From positions 1 to 39,859 of IMG/VR virus record IMGVR_UViG_3300035670_000550: a stretch of 39,859 nucleotides of DNA; one strand, written 5' to 3'. This DNA comes from a virus. How positions within the stretch are numbered: the stretch's first letter is position 1; every line of letters begins with the position of its first letter. Shown piece after piece: positions 1 to 39,859 of this stretch. Made by a program: the position numbers and the translations under genes. The notes under the pieces are model-generated. The model was not told the origin of the DNA. It searched no databases and saw only the letters and a program-made list of their open reading frames with translations.

Positions 1-181
1 TGATCGGCTTATCGTGCTGCCGGGGCCTCGCGTCATCTTCGTCGAACTCAAGCGACCGAAGGGCGGCGTGATCTCGGCCCTGCAGCACTGGTGGCGGGCG
101 CAGCTCGTCGGGCTGGGCTGCGAACATTACTTTATCAAGACGCGCGCCGAGGTGGACGCGCTGGTAGGAGAAAAGACATGA
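1..181 (+). CDS. VRR-NUC domain nuclease (5' partial)
   Basis: The reading frame is open from base 2 to the TGA at 179-181, giving 59 residues of a C-terminal part. It contains V-F-V-E-L-K followed by K-G-G and then A-L-Q-x-W, the classic core of VRR-NUC endonucleases (a PD-(D/E)xK fold in which the E-x-K pair is catalytic). Such small standalone phage nucleases act on branched or flap DNA in replication and recombination. The stop overlaps the next gene's ATG as ATGA. The start lies outside the window. It leads the polymerase/primase block, which fits a role in DNA metabolism. Confidence 0.8.
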   Translation, partial: DRLIVLPGPRVIFVELKRPKGGVISALQHWWRAQLVGLGCEHYFIKTRAEVDALVGEKT

Positions 182-459
182 GCCATGAGAATGAAGACAA
201 CATCGCCGTCGTCGTCACGGGCGACGCGTGGGAGGAGCTGTACGGCATCCTGCGCCCGTTTCTGAAAGACATGGCCGTGTGGGGCAACCGGCACTCGCTG
301 CCGCTGGCGGCCGTCGAGGGCATGATCTGGGGCGTGAGCGAGGTGTTCCACGAATACGGCGAGGGCTGCCCGTGCGAGACTTGCCTCGACATCGCGGAGC
401 GCACGGCGGATGAGCTGTTCCGCCGCATGACTGAAGCCGCGCGCGTGGTGAGACACTGA
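178..459 (+). CDS. Hypothetical protein with C-P-C-E-T-C motif
   Basis: A 93-residue protein that I do not recognise. The ATG at 178 overlaps the nuclease stop (ATGA), which is why it is preferred to the longer upstream reading from 91. The second half carries C-P-C-E-T-C, a possible metal-binding or redox cysteine cluster, inside helical sequence. No signal peptide or membrane segment is seen. Its stop overlaps the polymerase start (TGATG), so it is translated as part of the replication block. Function unknown. Confidence 0.75.
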   Translation: MSHENEDNIAVVVTGDAWEELYGILRPFLKDMAVWGNRHSLPLAAVEGMIWGVSEVFHEYGEGCPCETCLDIAERTADELFRRMTEAARVVRH

Positions 460-11079: not shown

Positions 11080-11216
11080 TGCCGCTGAAAAAAGGTTCGT
11101 CGCAGAAGGTGATCTCGGCCAACATCAAGACCGAGATGAAGGCGGGCAAGCCCCAGAAGCAGGCCATCGCCATCGCCCTCAGCAAGGCCGGTAAGGCCAA
11201 GAAGGGGAAGAAGTGA
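11079..11216 (+). CDS. Small basic protein, DUF6496-like
   Basis: A 45-residue, lysine-rich protein beginning M-P-L-K-K-G-S-S and containing [15 protein letters not shown]. This is the pattern of the small DUF6496 family common in phage structural regions. It starts at a TGATG overlap with the preceding stop and ends in another TGATG overlap. Strong positive charge suggests binding to DNA or RNA, perhaps packaged with the genome; the family's function is unknown. Confidence 0.8.
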
Positions 11217-11365
11217 TGGCCAAGGGTCTCTACGCCAACATCCATGCCAAGCGCGAGCGTATCAAAGCCGGATCTGGCGAGAAGATGCGAAAGCCGGGCA
11301 CCAAGGGCGCCCCCACGGCGGCCGCCTTCAAGGCGTCGGCCAAGACGGCGAAGAAGGGCAAGTGA
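11216..11365 (+). CDS. Small basic protein of the L-Y-A-N-I-H-A-K type
   Basis: A 49-residue protein with G-L-Y-A-N-I-H-A-K-R-E-R-I and K-P-G-T-K-G-A-P-T-A-A-A-F. This arrangement is common in phages next to DUF6496-type genes. It is coupled by TGATG at both ends. It is highly basic and probably disordered. Function is unknown; nucleic-acid binding or a virion role is an inference from charge and position. Confidence 0.78.
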   Translation: MAKGLYANIHAKRERIKAGSGEKMRKPGTKGAPTAAAFKASAKTAKKGK

Positions 11366-15305: not shown

Positions 15306-15643
15306 TGGACATTCGTAACCCGGTCTTTACCGCAGACAACCGCATCGATTGCGAGGTTAAGCACCCCGCCTACGGCTGGATACCATTCACGGCAGACCCT
15401 AACGATGTAGAGCCCCACGGGCGAGAGATCTACGCAAGAGCTTTGGCCGTCGGCCCGGCAGCTTACGCCGCACCTCCTGTAGTTCCCCCCGCCAAGGCAG
15501 AACAGGAAGCCAAGCGTCACGCAGCCTACACCGAAGAAGCCGATCCCTTGTATTTCAAGTGGCAGGCTGGTGAAGGCACCGAGGAAGAGTGGCTTGCCAA
15601 GCGTCAGGAAATCCGTGACCGTTACCCCTACCCGGCTGAGTGA
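15305..15643 (+). CDS. Second fibre assembly-type protein
   Basis: A 112-residue protein. The C-terminus has Y-T-E-E-A-D-P-L-Y-F-K-W-Q-A-G and ends R-Y-P-Y-P-A-E, nearly the same module as in the 13189-13557 protein. The N-terminal half differs (D-N-R-I-D-C-E-V, G-W-I-P-F-T-A-D-P) and resembles segments that contact fibre tips. It follows the repeat fibre, making a second fibre/partner pair. The ATG at 15305 overlaps the preceding stop. Confidence 0.72.
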   Translation: MDIRNPVFTADNRIDCEVKHPAYGWIPFTADPNDVEPHGREIYARALAVGPAAYAAPPVVPPAKAEQEAKRHAAYTEEADPLYFKWQAGEGTEEEWLAKRQEIRDRYPYPAE

Positions 15644-15651
15644 GGACTGCA

Positions 15652-15876
15652 ATGGACGTGCTGGAAGCTCTGATGAAATGGATCGTGGCCCCCGTGGCCG
15701 CCTTTGTGTGGGTTCTGCACGTCAAGCAGCAGGCCCACGCGACGGACATTGAGGTGCTGAAGGCCCAAGCGGCAGCCACCACCAAGGCGCACGATCTCGA
15801 GATGAAGAACCTCCAGACGCTGATCCAGAAGGTGTTCGACAAGCTCGACAAGATTGAAGAGAGCCTGCGCAAATGA
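15652..15876 (+). CDS. Small membrane protein with coiled coil (candidate holin)
   Basis: A 74-residue protein. Residues about 10-26 (W-I-V-A-P-V-A-A-F-V-W-V-L) form one hydrophobic segment, followed by a charged coiled coil ending K-V-F-D-K-L-D-K-I-E-E-S-L. GAGG sits about 6 nt before ATG 15652. It overlaps the endolysin gene (ATGA). Its place at the head of the lysis cassette suggests a holin or holin partner, but the single-segment topology is not diagnostic. Confidence 0.6.
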   Translation: MDVLEALMKWIVAPVAAFVWVLHVKQQAHATDIEVLKAQAAATTKAHDLEMKNLQTLIQKVFDKLDKIEESLRK

Positions 15877-16538
15877 AGATCAATCAAGCGACCGTAGAGC
15901 TGGTCAAGGAGTTTGAGGGCTTCCGCGCGAAGGCCTACAAATGCCCTGCCGGGATCTGGACCATCGGGTACGGCACGACGGCTGCTGCCGGTGTCGGCAT
16001 CACACCGAAAGAGGGCATGACGATCACACGCAGCGACGCCGAGGGCTACCTGCACGGGGCGCTGGAGAAATTCGCTGCTCAGATCGAGAGCGATATCACT
16101 GCGCCGATCAACGAGAATGAGTTCGGGGCATTCGTCTCTCTGGCGTACAACATCGGCCCCGGCGCCTTCCGCAAGTCTTCCGCCTTGCGGCATTTCAACG
16201 CCGGAGACAAGGCGAAGGCGGCCGCCGCCATCCTGCTCTGGGATAAGGCGGGCGGCAAGGTGCTGAGGGGCTTGACCCGCCGCCGCGAGGCCGAGCGCAA
16301 GCTGTTCCTGACGCCGGTCGGCGGTAAGTTCGAGGGGCGCACGACTGTCGCCCAGTCGACCACGGTTCAGGCATCCGCCGTGCAAATCGCGTCTGGCGCG
16401 GGCGCAGGCATCGCGGCCGTCGGGGCTCTCGACGGCACGGCGCAGATTGTGGCTCTGGTGTTCGCGGGCGTCGTCGTGCTGGCGGCTCTCTGGATCATGC
16501 GGGAGCGCATCAAGAAGTGGGCGGAGGGCGTGAGGTGA
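15873..16538 (+). CDS. Endolysin, GH24 lysozyme with C-terminal membrane segment
   Basis: A 221-residue muramidase. E-F-E-G-F-R (E15 as catalytic glutamate), A-Y-K-C-P-A-G-I-W-T-I-G-Y-G-T and F-V-S-L-A-Y-N-I-G identify the T4/P22 lysozyme family, which ends near residue 150. An Ala/Thr/Gly linker and a hydrophobic helix (about 188-210, V-A-L-V-F-A-G-V-V-V-L-A-A-L) with a basic tail follow. The enzyme is therefore probably anchored to the inner membrane by its C-terminus. It is coupled to the spanin gene by GTGA. Confidence 0.9.
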   Translation: MKINQATVELVKEFEGFRAKAYKCPAGIWTIGYGTTAAAGVGITPKEGMTITRSDAEGYLHGALEKFAAQIESDITAPINENEFGAFVSLAYNIGPGAFRKSSALRHFNAGDKAKAAAAILLWDKAGGKVLRGLTRRREAERKLFLTPVGGKFEGRTTVAQSTTVQASAVQIASGAGAGIAAVGALDGTAQIVALVFAGVVVLAALWIMRERIKKWAEGVR

Positions 16539-16753
16539 TCTTCGCGCGTCTGAAGATGTGGGCGGCCGGGATCGCCCTCGTCGTGGCCGCGCTGGCAGCA
16601 AGCTGGTTTGGCGGCAGAAAGTCGGCTCAGGCTGACGCCAAGCAAGAGGAGCTTGAGGGCTATGTCGAGACGCGAAAGCGCATGGACGAGATTGGCCGCA
16701 TGTCTGATGCTGATGCTGCCCGTGACTGGCTGCGTGAGCGCGGTAAACACTGA
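16535..16753 (+). CDS. Rz: Inner-membrane spanin (Rz-like)
   Basis: A 72-residue protein starting at GTG 16535 (GTGA overlap with the endolysin stop). One N-terminal membrane helix (about 9-28, W-A-A-G-I-A-L-V-V-A-A-L-A-A) is followed by a charged periplasmic coiled-coil-like region. The next lipoprotein gene is embedded out of frame within it from 16662, the classical Rz/Rz1 arrangement. It would fuse inner and outer membranes in the last lysis step of a Gram-negative host. Confidence 0.8.
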   Translation: MIFARLKMWAAGIALVVAALAASWFGGRKSAQADAKQEELEGYVETRKRMDEIGRMSDADAARDWLRERGKH

Positions 16754-31048: not shown

Positions 31049-31189
31049 TCAGAATGGCGGCTCTTCGCCGGGGTAAGATGGCATCCAGCCGGTCGGCTTG
31101 GGGTATTCAAGGCGCGCTGGCTGCGGTTTCGGGGCGGTTGGCTGGGCGCGTACGCCCAGCTCGTTGAGGAAGCGTTCGAGGTCAGTCAC
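31049..31189 (-). CDS. 46-residue Pro-rich protein with SSB-like C-terminus
   Basis: GTG start at 31189, TGA at 31049-31051. The start lies 1 nt beyond the preceding stop. A short helix (D-L-E-R-F-L-N-E-L-G-V) leads into a Pro-rich stretch with G-W-M-P-S-Y and the final G-E-E-P-P-F. The acidic ending with terminal P-F resembles the D-D-x-x-P-F tip by which bacterial SSB recruits repair proteins. An SSB-tail mimic or adaptor is possible. It may equally be an unrelated small peptide. Confidence 0.6.
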   Translation of the reverse strand: MTDLERFLNELGVRAQPTAPKPQPARLEYPKPTGWMPSYPGEEPPF

Positions 31190-31190
31190 G

Positions 31191-31451
31191 TCAGGCCGCC
31201 TCGGCCGTCATGACCTCGATCACGCCGATGGAGACGAGGCGGTCGTACGTCTCGCGGCTGCCATCGAACTGGACGTGGTCGAAGTTCATGTACTGAAGCA
31301 GGTAGCGGCCCGACGCGCCGAGAGCGCACCAGCCCATGCCGCTGTTGGCGAAGCGGGCGATCTCCTTGGTCGAGGAACCGCGATTGGTGGTGACCGTCAC
31401 GCGCATGACGATGTCGGACTTCAGCTCTTTGATGGTCAGGGTCTTTTGCAT
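31191..31451 (-). CDS. Hypothetical early protein
   Basis: An 86-residue protein from ATG 31451 with AAGGAG in a CACCAACCAAGGA leader. It has M-Q-K-T-L-T-I-K-E-L-K-S-D-I-V-M-R-V-T-V, R-F-A-N-S-G-M-G-W and H-V-Q-F-D-G-S-R-E-T-Y-D-R-L. No family recognised. It is separated from the next upstream gene by a 65-nt spacer with its own hairpin, so it may be a separate translation unit. Confidence 0.78.
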   Translation of the reverse strand: MQKTLTIKELKSDIVMRVTVTTNRGSSTKEIARFANSGMGWCALGASGRYLLQYMNFDHVQFDGSRETYDRLVSIGVIEVMTAEAA

Positions 31452-31487
31452 GGTAGATCTCCTTGGTTGGTGATGGCCTTCGGGATG

Positions 31488-31505
31488 CCAGCCCCGCAGG
31501 GCTGG
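31488..31505 (-). other. Leader hairpin upstream of the 31451 gene
   Basis: C-C-A-G-C-C-C, loop of four, G-G-G-C-T-G-G forms a 7-bp stem in the 65-nt gap. It is followed on the - strand by CACCAACCAAGGAGA and then the start codon. The same order (hairpin, linker, this motif, ATG) is seen before the 31843 and 37309 genes. Confidence 0.5.
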
Positions 31506-31516
31506 TCACCGGAAGG

Positions 31517-31843
31517 TCAGAAGTTGTAGTCGTAGAACTTGCGCGGCTGCGGCTCGATGAGCGCCTTGCCGTAGGCGGTCCAGAAGCGGCCGTCATTGCG
31601 CTTGTTGGCCTTGATGACGTGGCCGTCTTCGTCGGCCTCGATGAGCCACTTCTGCGCGCTCTGGTTCGAGCAGTTGGCGACGAAACCGCCAGCGTGCCAC
31701 TCCGGCTTCCAGCTCGGGTCTTTCTCGCATTTCATGGCGCGCAGCGTGAGCTGCTTGCCGCTGGGGCTGACGGCGATGATTTCGTAGGGCGTGATGTCCG
31801 TGTAGCCGACGACGTTGGCGTATGCTTTGATTGCGAGGGTCAT
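31517..31843 (-). CDS. Conserved phage protein of unknown function
   Basis: A 108-residue protein. V-G-Y-T-D-I-T-P-Y-E-I-I-A-V-S-P-S-G-K-Q is followed by W-H-A-G-G-F-V-A-N-C-S-N-Q-S-A-Q-K-W, a C-terminal A-N-K-R-N-D-G-R-F-W-T and Y-D-Y-N-F. I have seen this arrangement as a hypothetical protein in other phages, always beta-rich. AAGGAG lies 8 nt before ATG 31843. It is preceded by the long structured leader. Confidence 0.8.
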   Translation of the reverse strand: MTLAIKAYANVVGYTDITPYEIIAVSPSGKQLTLRAMKCEKDPSWKPEWHAGGFVANCSNQSAQKWLIEADEDGHVIKANKRNDGRFWTAYGKALIEPQPRKFYDYNF

Positions 31844-32067
31844 TTCAGTTCTCCTTGGTGGTGTTGAATTATGACTGCCGCCCCTCGAGGCGGCAGGTAT
31901 CTTTCAACCTCTCCCTGTGTCCCCCCTTACGTTCTTCGCGGTTCGGGGTGCCTCGTCCGAGGCTGGCTGGTAGGGTGGCCCGGTGTTTCGCCGCCGGGTC
32001 GGCCAAAGAGCGTTTCGATACATTCTATGTACGCCCTCTGAAGTACCTTTGCAAGTACCTTTTGCGA
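31844..32067 (-). other. Structured 5' leader (candidate ncRNA/regulatory RNA)
   Basis: A 224-nt gap that contains no gene. On the - strand transcript it forms three neat hairpins: 31979-31998 (7 bp incl. one G-T), 31950-31963 (5 bp, tetraloop) and 31875-31896 (8 bp, 6-nt loop). The last ends about 30 nt before the start codon at 31843, just ahead of the CACCACCAAGGAGA leader. This may be a regulatory leader, processing site or small RNA; I see no known riboswitch pattern. Confidence 0.45.
32019..32062 (-). promoter_or_regulatory. Candidate promoter with paired AAGTACCTTT repeats
   Basis: On the + strand AAGTACCTTT occurs at 32041-32050 and 32053-32062, one helical turn apart, overlapping a - strand -35-like TTGCAA (32049-32054). 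A 17-nt spacer leads to TACATA (32026-32031). Beside it is a short perfect dyad, TACAT-TCT-ATGTA (32019-32031). The A+T-rich block begins right after the stop of the 32068 gene. The repeats could be an operator. The -10 match is weak. Confidence 0.35.
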
Positions 32068-32370
32068 TTAATTCGACGAATTTTTCGCAAGTCCCAGCTC
32101 GGCCGCCAAGGCGAGGTACGCCGCCCCGTCGACATAGCTGTCGCGGTGCGGACCGACGCGCAGGCGGGCGATCTTCAGCCACGCCATGCACAGAGCGACC
32201 TGCTCCGGCGACACCTGCGTGCCGAGGATGACCTGCCACCCGTCCGCGACGCGCTGGAAGTTCTCAGCGGGCGGGCCGTACGTGTCCTGCCGGTCGCCGT
32301 GGATCAGGCTGTCAGCCTCCCGCAGAACCTCGCCCCGGATCGTGTCTCTGTCCAACACCCACTTAGCCAT
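32068..32370 (-). CDS. DUF6378-type protein
   Basis: A 100-residue protein from ATG 32370 (8-nt overlap with the dCTP deaminase stop). V-L-R-E-A-D-S-L-I-H-G-D-R-Q-D-T-Y-G-P-P, A-W-L-K-I-A-R-L and H-R-D-S-Y-V-D-G-A-A-Y are diagnostic of DUF6378, a phage family with a MazG-like helical look. Being next to a nucleotide-pool enzyme suggests a role in nucleotide metabolism, but none is established. Confidence 0.85.
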   Translation of the reverse strand: MAKWVLDRDTIRGEVLREADSLIHGDRQDTYGPPAENFQRVADGWQVILGTQVSPEQVALCMAWLKIARLRVGPHRDSYVDGAAYLALAAELGLAKNSSN

Positions 32371-32809
32371 GCCGTGCCTCCACCGGATGATCCCCCTGCC
32401 CCTGATACTTGCCGTCGTACGCCCGGGGCTCATGCAGCTCATGGAACAGCACCTGCGCGATGCCCGCCCCGGCCGGGATGTCGATTGACCAGTCGCCGTG
32501 ATAGACCAGCTCGAGGGTCAGGAAGCCGCGCCAGCCGGGCTCGATCACGGTGTTGAAGACCGACAGGCCGCGCCGGGCCCACGTCGACTTGTCATGCACG
32601 ACGCCGACCAGATGCTCCGGCATCTGGAACTCCTCGATGGCCGAGGCCAGCGTGAACCGCTTGCTGGTCGACAGGTACACGTGCTGCTTCAGGCGAATGT
32701 CATATCCGGCCTCACCGAGGCCATAGCTGACGCCATGCTCGCGACGCTTGTCAGGCACCATGTCCTTGATGGGCGCCGCCTTGTACAACAGTTTTCCATT
32801 TAGTAGCAC
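32363..32809 (-). CDS. dcd: dCTP deaminase/dUTPase-like enzyme
   Basis: A 148-residue protein starting at GTG 32809 with AAGGAG 7 nt upstream. G-Y-D-I-R-L (35-40), H-D-K-S-T-W-A-R-R-G-L (72-82), N-T-V-I-E-P-G-W-R-G-F-L-T-L-E (E100 as candidate catalytic residue), A-G-A-G-I-A-Q-V-L-F and Y-D-G-K-Y-Q-G-Q are hallmarks. The enzyme would make dUMP/dUTP or remove dUTP to supply phage DNA synthesis. Its sequence does not decide between dCTP deaminase and dUTPase activity. Confidence 0.9.
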   Translation of the reverse strand: MLLNGKLLYKAAPIKDMVPDKRREHGVSYGLGEAGYDIRLKQHVYLSTSKRFTLASAIEEFQMPEHLVGVVHDKSTWARRGLSVFNTVIEPGWRGFLTLELVYHGDWSIDIPAGAGIAQVLFHELHEPRAYDGKYQGQGDHPVEARHG

Positions 32810-32810
32810 A

Positions 32811-34217
32811 TCAGATCTCCTTCAGGCTCGAGACAAACTCTTTCTCCGCGTCGATCTTTTCCTCGACACGACGCAGGCGCAACTGCTCATACGGGTGATC
32901 GGCCAGCAGCCGGTGAACGAACACGGGCTTGGTCTGCCCGGGGCGCGCCAGCCGCTTGACCGTCTGCGCGTACAGCTCCGGCGACCACGGCATGGCGTAC
33001 CAGAGCATCCGCGCGCCGCCGAACTGCAGGTTCAGGCCGTGCCCCGCGCTGGCCGGGTGGAGGGCCAGCAGCGGCAGGCGGCCCGCGTTCCAGTCCTCGA
33101 TGACGCGGTCGGCCTTCTTGTCGCTGACGCCAGCCCCGAGGTGCGGCATGTCCGGCCACAGCTCGCGCAGGACGTTCAGATCCTCCTGATACCAGTAGCA
33201 GAGGATGAGCGGCTCGCCGTCGAGGGCGGCGATGAAGTCGACCAGCGCGTCGGTCTTCCCGGCGTCGTAGTGCTGGACGGCCTCCCCCTCGCTGTAGACG
33301 TAGCCCTGCATGATCTGCGAGAGCTTGCCGCTGGCGACGGCCTGCGACAGGGCCACGATGGCCGCGTCGTCGCTCGGGTCGATGTCGGACAGCGTCCCCT
33401 CGCGCCCGAGGTGGATCATCAGCTCGCGCTCCATGCTGTCGGCATCAGCGCGGGCGGCGGGCGAGAGCGGCACGATGAGATCGTAGTCCGGGCCCGAGAC
33501 AAACGGCACGTCGACGGTGTCGGTGCCGGGGATCGTCACCATCCAGTCGTCGATGACGCTCTGCAGGTACGGCAGGGACGCATCCACGACACGCCACTTG
33601 CGGCCGTGGTAGTCGAGCGGCTGGAAGTAGGACATGCGCCACGGGTCGAATGACTTGCCCCACGCGCGGCCCTTGGAGACGATCTGCAGGGGCATCCACA
33701 GATCCTCCCACCCGCCCGGGCGCGGCGTGCCGGTCAGGCCCCAGATGGCGCCGAACTTGGTGCTGAACTTGTTCAGCGCCTTGGCCCTCGAGCCGCGCGG
33801 GTTCTTGAAGCGCGACAGCTCGTCGATCACAAGCTGATCGAGGCCCGGGTGGCCGGGGAGGCCCTTCAGCTCGTCGATCAGCCACGGCAGGTTGTCGATG
33901 CCGCACACGTAGACGTCATGCGCCTCGCGCAGGGTGGCCGCGCGCTGGGCGGCCGTGCCGCCCAGTACGCCGAAGTCGAGCCCGGAGAGGTGTTCCCAGA
34001 CTTGGATCTCGCGCGGCCACGTCGAGAGCGCGACGCGCTTGGGCGCCACGACGATGGCGGCCCGGATCGTGCCCGCGTCGAGCAGATCTCGGATCGCCGT
34101 CAGGGCGCACGCGGTCTTGCCGCCGCCCATGCCGAGGACGATGACGACGCCCTCGCTCGTCTTCATTTCGTCGATGAGGCGGAGCTGCACCGGGCGGAGC
34201 TGGGCGCGCGTTCTCAT
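32811..34217 (-). CDS. SNF2-family DNA helicase/translocase
   Basis: A 468-residue SF2 ATPase. A start at 34217 is chosen because it overlaps the previous gene (ATGA). L-R-P-V-Q-L precedes Walker A G-M-G-G-G-K-T (K34). The DEAx box is D-E-L-S (D132, E133), motif III is L-T-G-T-P (161-165), and near the end Q-T-V-K-R-L-A-R-P-G-Q is motif VI. It is a compact phage DNA translocase, probably for replication or recombination. Confidence 0.92.
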   Translation of the reverse strand: MRTRAQLRPVQLRLIDEMKTSEGVVIVLGMGGGKTACALTAIRDLLDAGTIRAAIVVAPKRVALSTWPREIQVWEHLSGLDFGVLGGTAAQRAATLREAHDVYVCGIDNLPWLIDELKGLPGHPGLDQLVIDELSRFKNPRGSRAKALNKFSTKFGAIWGLTGTPRPGGWEDLWMPLQIVSKGRAWGKSFDPWRMSYFQPLDYHGRKWRVVDASLPYLQSVIDDWMVTIPGTDTVDVPFVSGPDYDLIVPLSPAARADADSMERELMIHLGREGTLSDIDPSDDAAIVALSQAVASGKLSQIMQGYVYSEGEAVQHYDAGKTDALVDFIAALDGEPLILCYWYQEDLNVLRELWPDMPHLGAGVSDKKADRVIEDWNAGRLPLLALHPASAGHGLNLQFGGARMLWYAMPWSPELYAQTVKRLARPGQTKPVFVHRLLADHPYEQLRLRRVEEKIDAEKEFVSSLKEI

Positions 34218-34540
34218 GACTTGTCCGCCAGTGCCGCCTTGCGCTCGCGAGCCATGCGCGCCAGCGTGCGCTCGATGGCGGCAGGGCTGCACGACCAGAC
34301 AGGCTTGCCGCGCGTCTTCGGCGCCTCCGCCTCGACCACGTCTCTCCAGAAGCGGCTGCGGGTCGAGGGGATCTGGGGATCGAACTTGGACGTCGCCAGC
34401 TCGATGCCGAACCTCTCGCAGGCGGCGGCGATGGACGACCTGTGCATGCCGTAGTGCTTTGCCGTCTGGTTAACCCCCCAGCCCTTATCCCTCGCTGCCA
34501 CCATCATGTCGCGAGTGATGAATTTCCGTCCTGTAGCCAT
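34214..34540 (-). CDS. Helix-turn-helix protein
   Basis: A 108-residue protein from ATG 34540, chosen because AAGGAG is ideally spaced; it lies inside the end of the upstream gene by 56 nt. Residues ~16-45 (G-W-G-V-N-Q-T-A-K-H-Y-G-M-H-R-S-S-I-A-A) look like a helix-turn-helix. The C-terminus is basic. It may regulate the early block or be a DNA-binding partner of the helicase. Confidence 0.75.
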   Translation of the reverse strand: MATGRKFITRDMMVAARDKGWGVNQTAKHYGMHRSSIAAACERFGIELATSKFDPQIPSTRSRFWRDVVEAEAPKTRGKPVWSCSPAAIERTLARMARERKAALADKS

Positions 34541-34700
34541 AGGCTTTCTCCTTTATTCTGTTGATCTCGGCCAAATTCTGCTTGGCCATGTATTCGATAA
34601 GCTCCAACTGCTCCTGCGTGACCCACCAACCGGGCAGCTTGACGTAGCCAGCCAGCCTCAAGGCCCTCGATCCGGGGCTGTTGGACGGGTCACGGGGCAT
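34485..34700 (-). CDS. Small hypothetical protein
   Basis: A 71-residue protein from ATG 34700 that overlaps the previous gene's end by 11 nt and the HTH gene by 56 nt. It contains G-Y-V-K-L-P-G-W-W-V-T-Q-E-Q-L-E-L-I-E-Y-M, then a basic helix. The upstream 32-codon extension has no ribosome site and is ignored. Unknown. Confidence 0.72.
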   Translation of the reverse strand: MPRDPSNSPGSRALRLAGYVKLPGWWVTQEQLELIEYMAKQNLAEINRIKEKAYGYRTEIHHSRHDGGSEG

Positions 34701-34866
34701 CGTTGGCGTCCCTCGGCCAGTAATGGTTGCATGTCTCTCCTTCGCTGGGCAGACCCATGAACCATGCCTGCCGATACTCACTCGGCTTCGTGCCACTGGC
34801 AGGGTTTCGGTAGCACTTGGTCTTGAGCGGACAGGTCTCGCTGCCGCACATGGAAATATCAGGCAT
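34690..34866 (-). CDS. Small Cys-rich (zinc-binding-like) protein
   Basis: A 58-residue protein from ATG 34866, overlapping the preceding gene by 8 nt. Cysteines are arranged C-G-S-E-T-C-P-L-K-T-K-C and, after a linker with Q-A-W-F, C-N-H-Y-W. This four-Cys pattern suggests metal binding. The same shape is seen in small early proteins of many phages. No partner is known. Confidence 0.75.
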   Translation of the reverse strand: MPDISMCGSETCPLKTKCYRNPASGTKPSEYRQAWFMGLPSEGETCNHYWPRDANDAP

Positions 34867-35605
34867 CTTTCTCTCCCTCAATCTCGGCCAGCGTGGCGCG
34901 GGCGATTTTACCAAAATCTGTGCTTCCGAGACCCCAAGGGCCATCACTTGGCAGGCCGTATCTATTTTCGTCCGCATAGAACCGCAGCGCCTCCACCGCC
35001 TTCGCCAGCTTGGCCTCAACAGCCAGTGTGCGGTTGATATGCGCCATCGTGGCGTTGGCGCTGTCGCGGGCTACCTTTTCCAACGTATCAACGGTCTGTG
35101 CGTTGGCATAACCCGGAGCGTCCTCACCGCCGCAGATGGCTAAGGCCAGACGCTCACGCTCCTCCCGCAGTTCGTGCATCTGGTTGTGCCACTCGCCGCA
35201 ATAGCCAGTGTTGAAACAGTCAGAGCAGCCATAAGGCTCGGGCGCTCCTCTGGGGCCACGGCAAGTCATGCACACTCCCTCTCGCCCTGCGACATCCTGC
35301 CAATGATCCCGCTCCTTCTCCAACTCCTCCGCATAAGCCTCGGCCTCCTTGGCGTCAGCGCGGGCGGCTTCGAGTTGTTCGGTCAGGGCATCCGCTTCTT
35401 TCCGCCAATGCACAAACGACTTCCAATGCTCGTCCCTCTCGGCGGTCAGGGCTTCGATGCGGTCGGCGGTATCTGGAACAAGGTTCCTAAGCACCAGTAA
35501 ATTCGTGAACCCGTCAGGTCGCTTCTCAGGCCACATCTTCACAAGGTCGTAGGTGTCACGCAGCGCCTTCACCAGCTCTTCGTCAGTCAGTTCTTCGTCA
35601 GTCAT
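34859..35605 (-). CDS. Coiled-coil protein with internal zinc-ribbon-like cysteines
   Basis: A 248-residue protein, acidic start and long coiled coil (residues ~55-105), then C-M-T-C-R-G-P, Y-G-C-S-D-C-F-N-T-G-Y-C, and another helical stretch. The C-terminus has A-L-R-F-Y-A-D-E and A-R-A-T-L-A-E-I. The paired C-x-x-C motifs could hold zinc. It starts in an ATGA overlap with the 35602 gene. Unknown, typical of variable early proteins. Confidence 0.72.
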   Translation of the reverse strand: MTDEELTDEELVKALRDTYDLVKMWPEKRPDGFTNLLVLRNLVPDTADRIEALTAERDEHWKSFVHWRKEADALTEQLEAARADAKEAEAYAEELEKERDHWQDVAGREGVCMTCRGPRGAPEPYGCSDCFNTGYCGEWHNQMHELREERERLALAICGGEDAPGYANAQTVDTLEKVARDSANATMAHINRTLAVEAKLAKAVEALRFYADENRYGLPSDGPWGLGSTDFGKIARATLAEIEGEKDA

Positions 35606-35865
35606 CCCTTCTCCCCTTTCAGTTTTGCGACGGCGGCGCGCAGCCTCTGGGCTTCTTCGTAAAGTGGGCTTGCAGAATGCTGATCTGTCGGCCAGCGCGC
35701 CATTAGTGCTTTCGCCGCCCCCACCAGTTCCGTCACATCGGGCGCGTCGATAAGGGCTTCGATGCGGTCAGCTCGGACGTATTCAATTTCTTGGGTTCCG
35801 CCCGATACAGGCGACCAGTTTCCGCCCCAAGCATCAATCCATATCCGTTCAGGTGCGTCAGTCAT
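35602..35865 (-). CDS. Small hypothetical early protein
   Basis: An 87-residue protein from ATG 35865 (ATGA overlap), preferred to the 35967 start. P-E-R-I-W-I-D-A-W-G-G-N-W, I-E-Y-V-R-A-D-R-I-E-A-L and a final helix (R-L-R-A-A-V-A-K-L-K) are the arrangement of many phage early proteins of unknown role. G-C use is less extreme than in the core genes. Confidence 0.7.
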   Translation of the reverse strand: MTDAPERIWIDAWGGNWSPVSGGTQEIEYVRADRIEALIDAPDVTELVGAAKALMARWPTDQHSASPLYEEAQRLRAAVAKLKGEKG

Positions 35866-36293
35866 CCCCGTGGCCTCCGCTGCTTGCTGTCTTTCCAATC
35901 CACTGTCCCGATCTGCACGATGCCGGGGAAGTCGTCGATGCGGGTGACGCCAGACTGAGAAATCCACAGACCTGCATATATCTCCATATCAATTGCAGCC
36001 GCATACACCCTGTTGTCTTGCTGTCTCGCCACCCACTCAACCCAATAAGGCAGCTTCTCCCATGCGATCACGTCTTGGGTCTTCAAAGAGCTTTGCTCGC
36101 TACGCTGCGCGGGCAGGGGGACGGTGCGGTAGACACAGTGGTTTAGAAAAGCTTCCATTTCTCTTGGCCAATCACGCCCATCATAGCGTGCGACAACAAT
36201 CTCCCCACCCGCCTTCTCATGCTCATGCAGCGCAGCCTTTTCCTCGTCGGTCAGCAGGCCATACGGCACACGATTGTTGGTCATGTCGATCAT
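35862..36293 (-). CDS. Hypothetical early protein of the V-P-Y-G-L-L type
   Basis: A 143-residue protein from ATG 36293 (ATGA overlap with the small membrane gene). N-N-R-V-P-Y-G-L-L-T-D-E-E-K-A-A-L and C-V-Y-R-T-V-P-L are familiar from uncharacterised phage proteins with an N-terminal helical clamp and a small beta domain. The C-terminus (I-D-D-F-P-G-I-V-Q-I-G-T-V-D-W) is less conserved. The codon use here is more A+T-rich than the genome core. Confidence 0.72.
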   Translation of the reverse strand: MIDMTNNRVPYGLLTDEEKAALHEHEKAGGEIVVARYDGRDWPREMEAFLNHCVYRTVPLPAQRSEQSSLKTQDVIAWEKLPYWVEWVARQQDNRVYAAAIDMEIYAGLWISQSGVTRIDDFPGIVQIGTVDWKDSKQRRPRG

Positions 36294-36460
36294 TTCACAC
36301 AGCTCCCTTCGACCCATTGTTTATCGGCGGCGATGCACTGTTCGTAGCGCACTTGACCTCGCTCCATGTCTTCGAGCAGCAGATACCCAAAGCCGTAAAC
36401 AATGAACGCGATCAAAACGGTCCCGGCCAGATACGGAATGCTGTCCCAGAACTCTCTCAT
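36290..36460 (-). CDS. Small membrane protein (56 aa)
   Basis: ATG 36460 to TGA 36290-36292. A short start (R-E-F-W-D-S-I-P-Y) leads into one membrane helix (about 10-29, A-G-T-V-L-I-A-F-I-V-Y-G-F-G-Y-L-L-L), then a charged tail with two cysteines. Both ends overlap neighbours by ATGA, which supports coding. It could act at the host membrane; its function is unknown. Confidence 0.75.
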   Translation of the reverse strand: MREFWDSIPYLAGTVLIAFIVYGFGYLLLEDMERGQVRYEQCIAADKQWVEGSCVK

Positions 36461-36672
36461 GTTAGTCCCTCCTTGTATTCCTGAATTGCTCTACGGACTT
36501 GAGCCATGACGTTCAGGATGCCCCTGTTGGTGCTGCCGCGACCCGATCTGGGCAGTATGCCACACAGGCGTCCGCCGACCTTGATCTTGTAGTGTCGCGC
36601 GCCGTTCTCGATTTCATACGGCACACCTGAGGCAGCCAACTCCTCCTCAAAAGGCGCGAAGTGCTTCTTCAT
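36457..36672 (-). CDS. Small HicA-like-fold candidate protein
   Basis: A 71-residue protein from ATG 36672 (ATGA overlap), chosen over 36690. F-E-E-E-L-A-A-S-G-V-P-Y-E-I-E, G-A-R-H-Y-K-I-K-V-G-G-R-L-C-G-I-L-P and a basic helix resemble in outline the alpha-beta-beta-beta-alpha layout of HicA-type or dsRBD-like proteins. No HicA catalytic H is in the usual context, so it is not called a toxin. Function unknown. Confidence 0.65.
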   Translation of the reverse strand: MKKHFAPFEEELAASGVPYEIENGARHYKIKVGGRLCGILPRSGRGSTNRGILNVMAQVRRAIQEYKEGLT

Positions 36673-36884
36673 CTCCGCCCCCGTTCCCAAGCCAGACGCG
36701 ACAGCCGATTGGCCAGCTCGTCGATGTCATCGACAGTCATCTGCCGATTTTCAAGGATGGCATAGTAGACAAAGTTCATGAACCGCTTGGTAGGCAGGAC
36801 GGACGCCGCGTTGCTGATCCCCATTGCGGCCTCTGCGTGGATATCACGGTGCGGCATGGTCTCTTCTTTCTTGCGCCAGAACAT
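36669..36884 (-). CDS. Small helical hypothetical protein
   Basis: A 71-residue protein. ATG 36884 shares its A with the preceding stop (TGATG); GTG 36887 is an alternative start. It contains F-W-R-K-K-E-E-T, then M-G-I-S-N-A-A-S-V-L and N-F-V-Y-Y-A-I-L-E-N. It is mainly helical. No recognised family. Confidence 0.68.
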   Translation of the reverse strand: MFWRKKEETMPHRDIHAEAAMGISNAASVLPTKRFMNFVYYAILENRQMTVDDIDELANRLSRLAWERGRR

Positions 36885-37309
36885 CACATGTCCTCCGCCA
36901 GCAGATCTTCCATGCGCAGCGCGTACAGACGCGTATGCACGACGCCCCCGTTGTCGGCCAGCGTGCGCAGCACGGCGTCGACATCGTCGAACTGCTCCTC
37001 GAGGAAGCGGGCCACCTCGCGCGCCGTCGCGGGCCCGTTCTCCAGCTCCTGCAGAACCTTTGCCGGCAAATTATCGAGACGCGCGCCGGGCGTCATGTGA
37101 CCCTCGAACTTGACGACGACCCACGGCGTGCGGTCGCGGTGCGTCTGGTTCGGCACGATCAGCGCCCGCACGCAGTCGCCAAGACCGATGTCGGCGTCCC
37201 GCGTGACGCGGGCGGGAATGAACACGCTCTCGCTGTGCGTCGTCGCCAAGACGCCAAAGGCGGTCCCGGTCGGCAGGATGTTGGTGATGAGGATGTCTTC
37301 AACAGGCAT
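36884..37309 (-). CDS. OB-like/winged-helix-like protein
   Basis: A 141-residue protein from ATG 37309, chosen for its CACCAACCAAGGA leader 7 nt away; the 26-codon-longer frame runs into a terminator. Residues 1-70 look beta-barrel-like (I-L-I-T-N-I-L-P-T-G-T-A-F-G-V-L, V-F-I-P-A-R-V, T-P-W-V-V-V-K-F-E-G), reminiscent of cold-shock/OB proteins. Residues ~75-130 look like a winged helix (N-G-P-A-T-A-R-E-V-A-R-F-L-E). It may bind nucleic acids; the fold is inferred only from pattern. Confidence 0.7.
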   Translation of the reverse strand: MPVEDILITNILPTGTAFGVLATTHSESVFIPARVTRDADIGLGDCVRALIVPNQTHRDRTPWVVVKFEGHMTPGARLDNLPAKVLQELENGPATAREVARFLEEQFDDVDAVLRTLADNGGVVHTRLYALRMEDLLAEDM

Positions 37310-37422: not shown

Positions 37423-38157
37423 TTACACCCGGCGGCGGCGGCCCTCGGGGGCGGCAGCGGCGGGCGCCGGGGCGGGCGCGGGCTCCGCCTTCACGACCTC
37501 GTCAACGGGCGCCGGAGCGCCATCGTCCGCGCTCTCTTGGCCCTGCATGTTGGCCCAGCTCACGATCTCGAGCTTGGGCACGTACGTGCGGCCGTAGCTC
37601 GCGTGCTGGTAGCTGTCCGAGCTGATCTGGATGATCGGGCAGATGAACTCCGACCCGGTGTCGATCTCGCGCATGATGGCGTCCAGCATATCGGTCAGGG
37701 CGCGCAGGCCGCCGACAGAGCTGGTCTTGTAGAGCGCCTGCTGGCCCGCGAACGCGCCATCGAGGAACTTGAGGTCGACCGACATCTGCTCGCGCCACGC
37801 GCACAGCTCCTGCGTGCGGGGGTCATTGTGCTGCGGGAGCGTCGAGGCGGGCGGCTTCTGGCCCCCGATGCCCCACATCTCCTCGCCCATCATCTCGTTT
37901 TTGCCCTGACCGGGCTGGCGGTTCGTCCAGCACGAATAGCCAGTCTGGAACGACATGGGGTTGACGATGGCCTCAGTGCCGTTCGGGACGGCATTGTCTT
38001 CGCGACCCATGACCCACGCGCCGTCCTTCAGGAGGCGGAGGAGCGGCTGCCCGCCGACGGAGGATGAGATGGTGGAGCGAACCTGCGCGAGGCCAGTGCG
38101 GAGCGATGCGAGAGCGGCGACGCCTGCAGCGTTCGGGGTAGTCAGTGCGTGGGACAT
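37423..38157 (-). CDS. Phage protein next to the Cas4-like nuclease (ssDNA-annealing/binding candidate)
   Basis: A 244-residue protein from ATG 38157 with an ACACAGGAGA ribosome site. Its core has R-L-L-K-D-G-A-W-V-M-G, P-M-S-F-Q-T-G-Y-S-C-W, S-V-D-L-K-F-L-D-G and Y-K-T-S-S-V-G-G, and H-A-S-Y-G-R-T-Y-V-P-K-L-E-I-V. The end is Pro/Ala-rich then G-R-R-R-R-V. It is known to me only as a conserved hypothetical. Adjacent DUF2800-type nucleases usually travel with ssDNA-binding or annealing proteins, hence the inference. Confidence 0.7.
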   Translation of the reverse strand: MSHALTTPNAAGVAALASLRTGLAQVRSTISSSVGGQPLLRLLKDGAWVMGREDNAVPNGTEAIVNPMSFQTGYSCWTNRQPGQGKNEMMGEEMWGIGGQKPPASTLPQHNDPRTQELCAWREQMSVDLKFLDGAFAGQQALYKTSSVGGLRALTDMLDAIMREIDTGSEFICPIIQISSDSYQHASYGRTYVPKLEIVSWANMQGQESADDGAPAPVDEVVKAEPAPAPAPAAAAPEGRRRRV

Positions 38158-38227: not shown

Positions 38228-39499
38228 TCAGACCTTGCGGCCCTGCAGGGCGTCCGACAGGGCGCGCAGCCTCTCCGGTACAGACTGCACCGGCTTCTTG
38301 ATCTTGTCGCTGCGGGACAACTTTGTTCCGCTGGAGACGCCCGCCTCGACATAATGTTTCGGCAGAGCCAGATCCTTCGCCTTCAGCAGCTTCTCGATCT
38401 GCGCGGGCGATTTTACCTTACGCTCGGTCCACGCGTCCATCTTGATGCGGTGCCGCTTGAAATAGAGGCGCAGTGTGCTTTCCTCGACAGCCCAAGTACG
38501 GGCGCCAGCCTTCTTCGCCTCGAGGCCCCACCCGGGGATCTCGGACCCCTGCTCGACGTACGCGTGCGCCTGAGCGAAGATGTCGGCGATCAGGGGCTCC
38601 GCCAGCTCCGCCATCTCGAGCAGCTCGGCGTACCGCTGGCCCCACTCGGCGCGATCCTCGGGAGACCCGTTCGAGGCCGCTTGGCGCGCCTTCAGGGCCT
38701 CGAGCTTCTCTCCCAGCACGGCCACCGCATTGAGGTGCAGCGGGCAGACGGTCTTGCAGCGCGCGAAGTCGCACCAGCTCCCCTTGGCGATGCGGGCGTC
38801 GTCCTTCTGCGCCTCCTCGACGGCCTGCTTCAGGTCGGCGACGTACGCGTCGAGGGCGGCCACATCTGTGGTCCAGTGCTGCACGATCTCGTTGCCGGAC
38901 TGCGCATTCAGCGGCTGGATGATGGCCAGCGTGACGGGCGTGTCCGGGTACACGGCGCCGATCCAGTCGGCCTCGGTGTTCAAGGCCCCGGCCGCGTAGA
39001 ACATGAGCTGCTTGTTCTCTTCCGCGCGCACGGTCTTGAAACCGAATTTCCAATCCATGACGAAGATCTCGTCGCCGCAGACGGCGATGATGTCCGACGT
39101 GCCGAAGGCGCCCGGGATGCCCGGCACCGCCACGCGGCGCTCGACCAGCAACCGCATCTCGCTGTCGAGGCGGGCCTCCTGCGCGGCGCAGAAACGGTCG
39201 AAGGCGGCCAGCGCGGGCTCGCCCTTGTCATCCCACAGCTTGCGGTCGACCGTGAAGCTCCAGCTCCCGTCGGCGGCCGTGAAGGTGTAGGGCAGCATGT
39301 CGGTCGGCTCTACCCCGTCGCGCAGGGCCATCGCCATCAGCTCATGCAGCGCCGTCCCCTCACGGGCGTACTCGCTGCCGCGCTCATCCTTCGGGACGAG
39401 CTGCTCGAGCTTGTATGAACGCGGGCACCCCATGCGGCGGGCGGCGGTGGAGCCGCCGACGATGTCGCTGTGTTCCTCTGGTGTCAGGTGTTCAGTCAT
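38228..39499 (-). CDS. DUF2800/Cas4-like PD-(D/E)xK nuclease with four-Cys cluster
   Basis: A 423-residue nuclease, start at ATG 39499 (ATGA overlap with the Tad2 gene; the 39547 frame is too long). R-E-G-T-A-L-H-E (48-53), G-T-S-D-I-I (D136), M-D-W-K-F-G (D149, K151) and N-K-Q-L-M-F-Y-A (Q164) are the RecB-family motifs. C25 plus C243, C248 and C252 match the iron-sulphur arrangement of Cas4/AddB exonucleases. It probably generates recombinogenic ends with the 37423 protein. Confidence 0.9.
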
Positions 39500-39717
39500 A
39501 CCACCACCCAATCCTCCGCCAGCATGTCCGTCTGCGAGGCCAGCCACGGGACTTGTTGGTCATCTGCCGTCTTCATGTAGATGTACGGCAGCGTCATCTT
39601 GCTGTGAGCGTCCGGGCGCTGCAAGGCCAGCCACATCCCCTTCCCGTTCCAGCCAGAGCGGGCAACCCGCGCGCCGCCCCTCAACGCGATAAGCGCTTGT
39701 CCGAAGTCCATGCTCAT
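39496..39717 (-). CDS. tad2: Tad2-like Thoeris anti-defence protein (DUF2829)
   Basis: A 73-residue protein with [36 protein letters not shown] and [14 protein letters not shown]. These motifs cover the DUF2829/Tad2-like domain from end to end. Known Tad2 proteins bind and sequester the cyclic ADP-ribose isomer signal made by ThsB, blocking Thoeris immunity. The gene is coupled by ATGA on both sides. Not every DUF2829 member has been shown to act on Thoeris. Confidence 0.9.
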
Positions 39718-39859
39718 GCTTTGACCTCCGGTACGGCGGCAAGGATAGCCGCCTCGATGATAACGTACTCGGGGCGCCCAGTGTACGCGGCGGCAGCCTT
39801 GACGCGGGCGCGGACGTCCGGCGAGAGGAAGGTCTTCACCTGCTCGCGAGGCTGCTCGG
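39714..39859 (-). CDS. Ribbon-helix-helix-type DNA-binding protein (5' partial)
   Basis: The visible 47 C-terminal residues read [30 protein letters not shown] (shown only as motif order: strand F-L-S, helix D-V-R-A-R-V-K, helix [10 protein letters not shown]). That is a ribbon-helix-helix pattern, like CopG-type regulators. The stop overlaps the Tad2 start (ATGA). The N-terminus lies beyond the window. Confidence 0.72.

What the first reader, a model, noticed from the sequence alone, without database searches (positions are those of the whole stretch)
39496..39717. Tad2-like Thoeris anti-defence gene in the early block
The 73-residue product matches the DUF2829/Tad2 domain end to end (W-N-G-K-G-M, M-K-T-A-D, P-W-x-A-S-Q-T-D-x-L-A-E-D-W). 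It sits in an operon with an RHH regulator and a Cas4-like nuclease. This suggests the host range includes Thoeris-bearing bacteria, and neighbours of unknown function (31049-37309) become candidates for other anti-defence proteins.
Basis: partly seen in the sequence, partly recalled or inferred. Interest (0 to 1): 0.7.

Follow-up and report, generated by a model that had tools for sequence, protein, structure and literature searches.

The report
Compact Tad2-like sponge in swappable slot
This phage carries a small protein of the Tad2 family, whose studied members soak up bacterial alarm molecules so that infected cells do not shut down; here it sits in a gene slot where sister phages carry a different kind of alarm-molecule sponge, another gene, or nothing.

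Summary
In detail: 39496-39717, on the minus strand, encodes a 73-aa protein matching Pfam Tad2-like (PF11195) end to end (96 bits, cut-off 25). Its predicted structure (pLDDT 92) matches every solved Tad2, including ligand-bound ones (Z about 12, all 73 residues), with the next unrelated fold at Z 5.9. It lies in a tightly overlapping operon between a probable ribbon-helix-helix gene, cut by the contig end, and a DUF2800/PD-(D/E)XK exonuclease. It lacks the beta2-beta5 insertion that binds cyclic dinucleotides in HgmTad2, so an ADP-ribose-type TIR signal is the likelier ligand; that is inferred. The host-range inference is weak: canonical Thoeris effectors occur in about 1 of 293 genomes of the only candidate host order. 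The 31-37 kb unknowns show no anti-defence match. An ordinary Tad2 homologue, in an informative genomic setting.

The parts
39496..39717 (-). compact Tad2-like protein, 73 aa
   Evidence: Pfam PF11195 96.3 bits; AF2 model pLDDT 92.3; Foldseek/VIA match to all Tad2 structures
39714..39859 (-). probable ribbon-helix-helix protein, N-terminus cut off by the contig end (about 13 aa missing)
   Evidence: 77-85% identical to complete 61-63 aa ORFs in L107-L109; fold match to RHH domains weak; no Pfam hit
39714..39717 (-). ATGA overlap: stop of the RHH gene / start of the Tad2 gene
   Evidence: sequence
39496..39499 (-). ATGA overlap: stop of the Tad2 gene / start of the exonuclease
   Evidence: sequence
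38228..39499 (-). DUF2800 / PD-(D/E)XK exonuclease, downstream border of the slot
   Evidence: Pfam PF10926 155 bits, PF12705 38 bits; PHROG 69 exonuclease; 70-82% identical in five relatives
37423..38157 (-). next gene of the same operon, replication-associated protein conserved with the exonuclease
   Evidence: 52-70% identical in relatives; PHROG 9528 only
2..190 (+). 5'-truncated nuclease-like gene (my reading of the sequence); divergent neighbour of the RHH gene once the contig is joined
   Evidence: complete in L107-L109, divergent from the RHH gene; no family search made
11214..11218 (+). empty late site: TGATG gene junction where sister phage L022 carries a small gene plus a Tad2 of another subtype

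Best explanation
The gene encodes a compact member of the Tad2 family of immune-signal sponges. It most likely folds and assembles like SPO1 Tad2 (a tetramer with two pockets) and binds, without degrading, an ADP-ribose-type signal made by a TIR protein of a Thoeris-like system (gcADPR, His-ADPR or a relative), so that the effector is not switched on during infection. It is made early from an operon whose first gene is a probable RHH regulator, by translational coupling through ATGA overlaps. The gene is an exchangeable accessory: it fills a slot between the RHH gene and the exonuclease that other phages of the same lineage fill with an Acb2-type sponge, another gene, or nothing. Shown here: family membership, predicted monomer fold, operon anatomy, slot variability. 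Inferred: tetramer, ligand, target system, early expression, regulation by the RHH protein.
For: Full-length Pfam match. PDB sequence hits only to Tad2/AcrIIA7 proteins. AF2 model matches SPO1 Tad2-gcADPR (8smf, TMq 0.86), ModTad2-hisADPR (9eib), HgmTad2 (8kbj) and SptTad2-cGG (8wjd) at VIA Z 11.6-12.6 over 71-73 residues; next entry Z 5.9. The segments that a review names as lining the gcADPR pocket (loop beta1-beta2; loop beta4-alpha3 and helix alpha3; PMC12043709) are R-x-G-W-N-G-K and W-x-x-S-Q-T-D-x-x-A-x-D-W, identical at these letters in the window, SPO1, Hgm and Spt proteins. W23-W58 spacing is 35 here against 48 (SPO1; ModTad2 by its length), 60 (Spt), 66 (Hgm): the insertion that binds cyclic dinucleotides is absent, and several SPO1 chains, ligand-bound ones included, have only 74-77 residues modelled. 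SPO1 Tad2 does not bind 3'3'-cGAMP (PMC11722364). Acb2/Tad1-hairpin proteins (PF24729, 49 and 44 bits) occupy the same slot in L107 and L109.
Against: No activity of any compact (35-spacing) Tad2 is reported in a paper I could read; the main Tad2 papers are not held. The pocket could not be checked on coordinates or as a tetramer. Canonical Thoeris effectors are rare in the candidate host order, and the host itself is uncertain. The compact clade has its own invariant block (Q33, P35, S39, M41, P44, Y45), which could mean a different ligand.
Confidence: 0.72

Rival explanations
1. It is a sponge for cyclic dinucleotides or other CBASS-type signals and works against CBASS rather than Thoeris.
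For: HgmTad2 and SptTad2 bind cyclic dinucleotides (PDB titles 8kbk, 8wjd); the same slot carries Acb2-type proteins in L107 and L109, so CBASS pressure on this lineage is plausible.
Against: In HgmTad2 this binding needs an insertion between beta2 and beta5 that is missing here (35 residues between the two tryptophans against 60-66). SPO1 Tad2, which is intermediate, does not bind 3'3'-cGAMP.
Confidence: 0.1
2. It binds an ADP-ribose-like or other nucleotide metabolite outside Thoeris (for example of an undescribed TIR system, or in NAD metabolism), the compact clade being a separate functional branch.
For: Compact clade has its own invariant block; it occurs in phages of very different hosts (Acinetobacter, Mycobacterium, Aeromonas), in places such as next to ribonucleotide reductase; canonical Thoeris effectors are rare in the candidate host order while TIR proteins are commoner.
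Against: The residues in the named pocket segments are the same as in characterised Tad2 and the fold match is complete. New TIR-based types would still count as Thoeris-like.
Confidence: 0.13
3. It is an AcrIIA7-type anti-Cas9 protein.
For: AcrIIA7 is a Tad2-family protein (8kbi, 9kzr).
Against: The same AcrIIA7 protein is solved with 1',2'-cADPR and cGG and is called HgmTad2 in the same series, so signal binding is its structurally documented activity; nothing here points to Cas9.
Confidence: 0.03
4. It is a decayed or inactive passenger.
For: Shorter than all Tad2 proteins with a solved structure.
Against: The compact form is a conserved clade: 53 relatives align with 16 invariant columns and mean identity 61%, and 38 of 80 nearest viral relatives have the same spacing.
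Confidence: 0.02

Closest known systems
SPO1 phage Tad2 (PDB 8sme/8smf/8smg)
   Same: fold over the whole protein (Z 12.6), 49% identity in the structural alignment, same W-N-G-K and S-Q-T-D motifs
   Different: 13 residues shorter between the two motifs; target not tested; other host group
ModTad2, Myroides odoratus prophage (PDB 9eib, with His-ADPR; 8v3e apo)
   Same: fold (Z 12.3-12.5), same family
   Different: 43-44% identical; 13 residues shorter; ligand unknown here
HgmTad2 / AcrIIA7 (8kbi-8kbm) and SptTad2 (8wjd)
   Same: fold, 51-56% identity over the aligned core
   Different: lacks their 25-31 extra residues, which include the cyclic-dinucleotide site of HgmTad2
DUF2829 proteins of Acinetobacter phage XC38 and Mycobacterium phage Curiosium
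   Same: 68-70% identical, same compact length
   Different: annotated as hypothetical or DUF2829, untested; other gene neighbourhoods
Acb2 / Tad1 hairpin family (PF24729)
   Same: the same genomic slot in L107 and L109; the same kind of function (signal sponge)
   Different: unrelated fold and sequence

Membership tests
Tad2-like (PF11195, formerly DUF2829) | match to the family profile above its curated cut-off, full length | tested here: met
   96.3 bits against 25, positions 1-73/73
Tad2-like (PF11195, formerly DUF2829) | Tad2 fold | tested here: met
   AF2 model pLDDT 92.3; Foldseek E 3e-8 to 1e-6 and VIA Z 11.6-12.6 to all Tad2 entries, next entry 5.9
Tad2-like (PF11195, formerly DUF2829) | residues of the ligand-pocket segments (loop beta1-beta2, loop beta4-alpha3, helix alpha3) | tested here: met
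   motif letters identical to SPO1, Hgm and Spt Tad2 in sequence alignment; individual ligand contacts were not checked on coordinates
Tad2-like (PF11195, formerly DUF2829) | homotetramer with two pockets | not testable with these tools
   only single chains can be predicted here
Anti-Thoeris protein (functional class) | binds gcADPR or His-ADPR and rescues phage from Thoeris | not testable with these tools
   needs binding and plaque assays
Cyclic-dinucleotide-binding Tad2 (HgmTad2 type) | insertion between beta2 and beta5 that carries the CDN site | tested here: not met
   motif spacing 35 against 60-66; no insertion in the model
Acb2/Tad1 hairpin (same slot in L107, L109) | match to PF24729 above cut-off | tested here: met
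   49.2 and 44.1 bits against 27
Ribbon-helix-helix regulator (first gene of the operon) | RHH profile or fold | tested here: inconclusive
   no Pfam hit; model pLDDT 77.5, nearly all listed PDB matches are RHH domains but E about 0.7 and Z about 4

The most novel reading that the evidence does not exclude
The gap between the RHH gene and the DUF2800 exonuclease is a dedicated counter-defence slot in a lineage of phages, where one-gene cassettes joined by ATGA overlaps are swapped, and unrelated sponge families (Tad2, Acb2) replace each other according to the signals hosts use; the compact Tad2 clade has its own signal specificity, and the unknown or uncharacterised genes in the slot (Nmad5-like, TerB-like, 162-aa and 91-aa unknowns) are new anti-defence genes.
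Probability: 0.3. Interest if true: 0.6.

Novelty: new member of a known kind. Interest (0 to 1): 0.4.

Why it matters
The protein itself is one more homologue of a large, known family. What is useful is the setting: the same operon position in sister phages holds Tad2, Acb2-type proteins, other genes or nothing, which makes the position a handle for finding further immune-evasion genes by comparison, and a natural experiment on which host signals this lineage meets. The compact form, shorter than any Tad2 with a solved structure, also asks whether the core alone is enough to hold ADP-ribose-type signals, which one binding assay can answer.

Tried and rejected
Megablast of 25 kb of the window against 50,697 phages: only two short matches, so no named close relative. 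PADLOC scan of Tad2 and nine neighbours: nothing convincing; LmuB 15.7 bits on a coiled-coil protein was not followed. Pfam and PHROG scans of the unknown genes at 30.7-37.4 kb: no anti-defence family. Family tree of 68 compact-clade sequences plus SptTad2: too few columns; the window protein is not placed in any well supported subset. It does not fall in the 41-spacing group carried by phages with similar late genes, so a separate acquisition is likelier than relocation, but this is not proven. Inverted repeat in the divergent RHH promoter: 8-base arms in L196/L198 (shuffles 1-2%), none or chance-level in L107-L109, so no general operator claimed. ATGA overlaps at the Tad2 gene: start in 33, stop in 42, both in 23 of 80 loci, but no background rate was measured and such overlaps are common in phages, so no insertion mechanism is claimed. 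phmmer of the L107 hairpin protein against the PDB gave nothing; its assignment rests on Pfam. The primary Tad2 papers are not in the library; pocket statements rest on a review (PMC12043709).

Full report
OBSERVATION. The window is a whole virus record of 39,859 bases without terminal repeats. The ORF 39496-39717 is on the minus strand and encodes 73 aa containing all the motifs quoted. Pfam assigns it to Tad2-like PF11195 at 96.3 bits over the whole model. The match is far beyond chance, and the sequences hit in the PDB are all Tad2 or AcrIIA7 entries.

STRUCTURE. An alignment of 53 sequences, the window protein and viral relatives, gave an AlphaFold2 model with mean pLDDT 92.3 and pTM 0.79. 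Foldseek found 24 PDB chains below E 0.001, all Tad2-family: SPO1 Tad2 with gcADPR, Myroides Tad2 with His-ADPR, HgmTad2/AcrIIA7, and SptTad2 with cGG. VIA-align gave Z 11.6-12.6 over 71-73 residues for these and 5.9 for the next entry. I could not check individual contacts, because neither coordinates nor the primary papers were accessible.

WHAT IS MISSING. The distance between the two motif tryptophans is 35 residues, against 48 in SPO1 Tad2, 60 in SptTad2 and 66 in HgmTad2. The extra segment of HgmTad2 between beta2 and beta5 carries its separate cyclic-dinucleotide site, and SPO1 Tad2 does not bind 3'3'-cGAMP (PMC11722364). A compact protein is therefore expected to be limited to the ADP-ribose-type pocket. 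This is an inference. The compact form is not a fragment: 38 of the 80 nearest viral relatives have the same spacing, and the clade has its own invariant block (Q33, P35, S39, M41, P44, Y45). Named phages with the same compact form include Acinetobacter XC38 and Mycobacterium Curiosium, annotated as hypothetical or DUF2829.

OPERON. Upstream is a small gene that runs off the contig; its complete relatives are 61-64 aa, and a model of one resembles ribbon-helix-helix domains only weakly. Downstream is a DUF2800 exonuclease and then a further operon gene conserved with it. The gene junctions on both sides of Tad2 are ATGA overlaps. In relatives the RHH gene is divergent from a nuclease-like gene whose 3' part lies at the left end of the window, so the contig is a nearly complete genome opened in that divergent region.

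THE SLOT. Scans for the exonuclease, the RHH protein and the DNA polymerase found five close viral relatives (exonuclease 70-82% identical) and one more distant one (L227, 44%); a search of named phages added Microcystis phage Mel-JY33 (43%). Contents between the RHH-type gene and the exonuclease: window, Tad2; L107, TerB-like, small membrane-type, 91-aa unknown and an Acb2/Tad1-hairpin protein; L109, TerB-like, small membrane-type, hairpin protein and 67-aa unknown; L108, an Nmad5 protein; L198, a 162-aa unknown; L196, L227 and Mel-JY33, nothing. The hairpin proteins score 49 and 44 bits against a cut-off of 27. Since the more distant phages and one close relative have nothing there, gain of cargo is the simpler history. 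A distant phage, L059 (exonuclease 28% identical), also has a Tad2 directly upstream of its DUF2800-type exonuclease.

OTHER SITES. Phages that share the window's late genes carry a 41-spacing Tad2 elsewhere: L022 (terminase 92% identical) at a late gene junction, where the window has the two flanking genes directly joined; L028, L068, L038, L045 and L047 in what looks like a lysis region, upstream of a staphylococcal-nuclease homologue and, in most, a gene with a peptidoglycan-binding domain. In this lineage Tad2 is thus an accessory gene found in at least three places. The tree is too weak to decide between relocation and separate acquisition.

HOST AND THOERIS. The best cellular relative of the capsid protein is a contig in a Rhodobacterales MAG (64%), others mostly Alphaproteobacteria. 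Among 293 genomes of that order, ThsA-SLOG (STALD) occurs in one and ThsA-Macro over cut-off in one, each on the same contig as a ThsB-type TIR gene; ThsB-type TIR proteins occur in 31, and Tad2-like proteins in four. So Thoeris exists there but is rare, and the host itself is uncertain; presence of a Tad2 gene should not be read as a host-range statement.

NEIGHBOURS. None of the unknown genes tested at 30.7-37.4 kb matches a known anti-defence or defence family convincingly. They are not excluded, but the evidence favours the RHH-exonuclease gap as the place to look.

VERDICT. A bona fide, compact Tad2-family protein, most likely a sponge for an ADP-ribose-type immune signal, encoded as exchangeable cargo in an early-type operon. 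The family is known; the slot shared with Acb2-type sponges is the more interesting part and rests on the window, six IMG/VR contigs and one named phage.

Noticed in passing
L107 5768-6007; L109 5546-5788: Standalone Acb2/Tad1-hairpin proteins (64% identical to each other) between the RHH gene and the DUF2800 exonuclease, where the window has Tad2.
   Followed up: yes
L108 5432-6007; L198 5198-5686; L107 5496-5771; L109 5790-5993: Other cargo in the same slot: an Nmad5-domain protein and three proteins without Pfam or PHROG match; candidates for new anti-defence genes.
   Followed up: partly
L107 4756-5199; L109 4960-5394: TerB-like (tellurite resistance) proteins next to the hairpin proteins in the slot.
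   Followed up: no
window 15640-16753: Lysis-type cassette (small membrane-type gene, phage lysozyme 145.6 bits, spanin-like gene) where sister phages with similar late genes have a Tad2, a staphylococcal-nuclease homologue and a different, peptidoglycan-binding protein.
   Followed up: partly
window 11214-11218 and L022 4900-5240: L022 carries a 33-aa cysteine-containing ORF plus a Tad2 inserted between two small basic genes that are directly joined in the window.
   Followed up: partly
L196 4970-4998; L198 same place: Inverted repeat TGTACTCC-N12-GGAGTACA between the divergent nuclease-like and RHH genes, a possible operator; not found in L107-L109.
   Followed up: partly
window 39496-39717 (model): The best non-Tad2 fold match is a neck protein of phage 812 (8qkh, Z 5.9, 10% identity), perhaps only a common arrangement.
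   Followed up: no
window 32068-34292: DUF6378 protein (101.6 bits), dCTP deaminase/dUTPase-like protein and SNF2-type helicase in a row.
   Followed up: no
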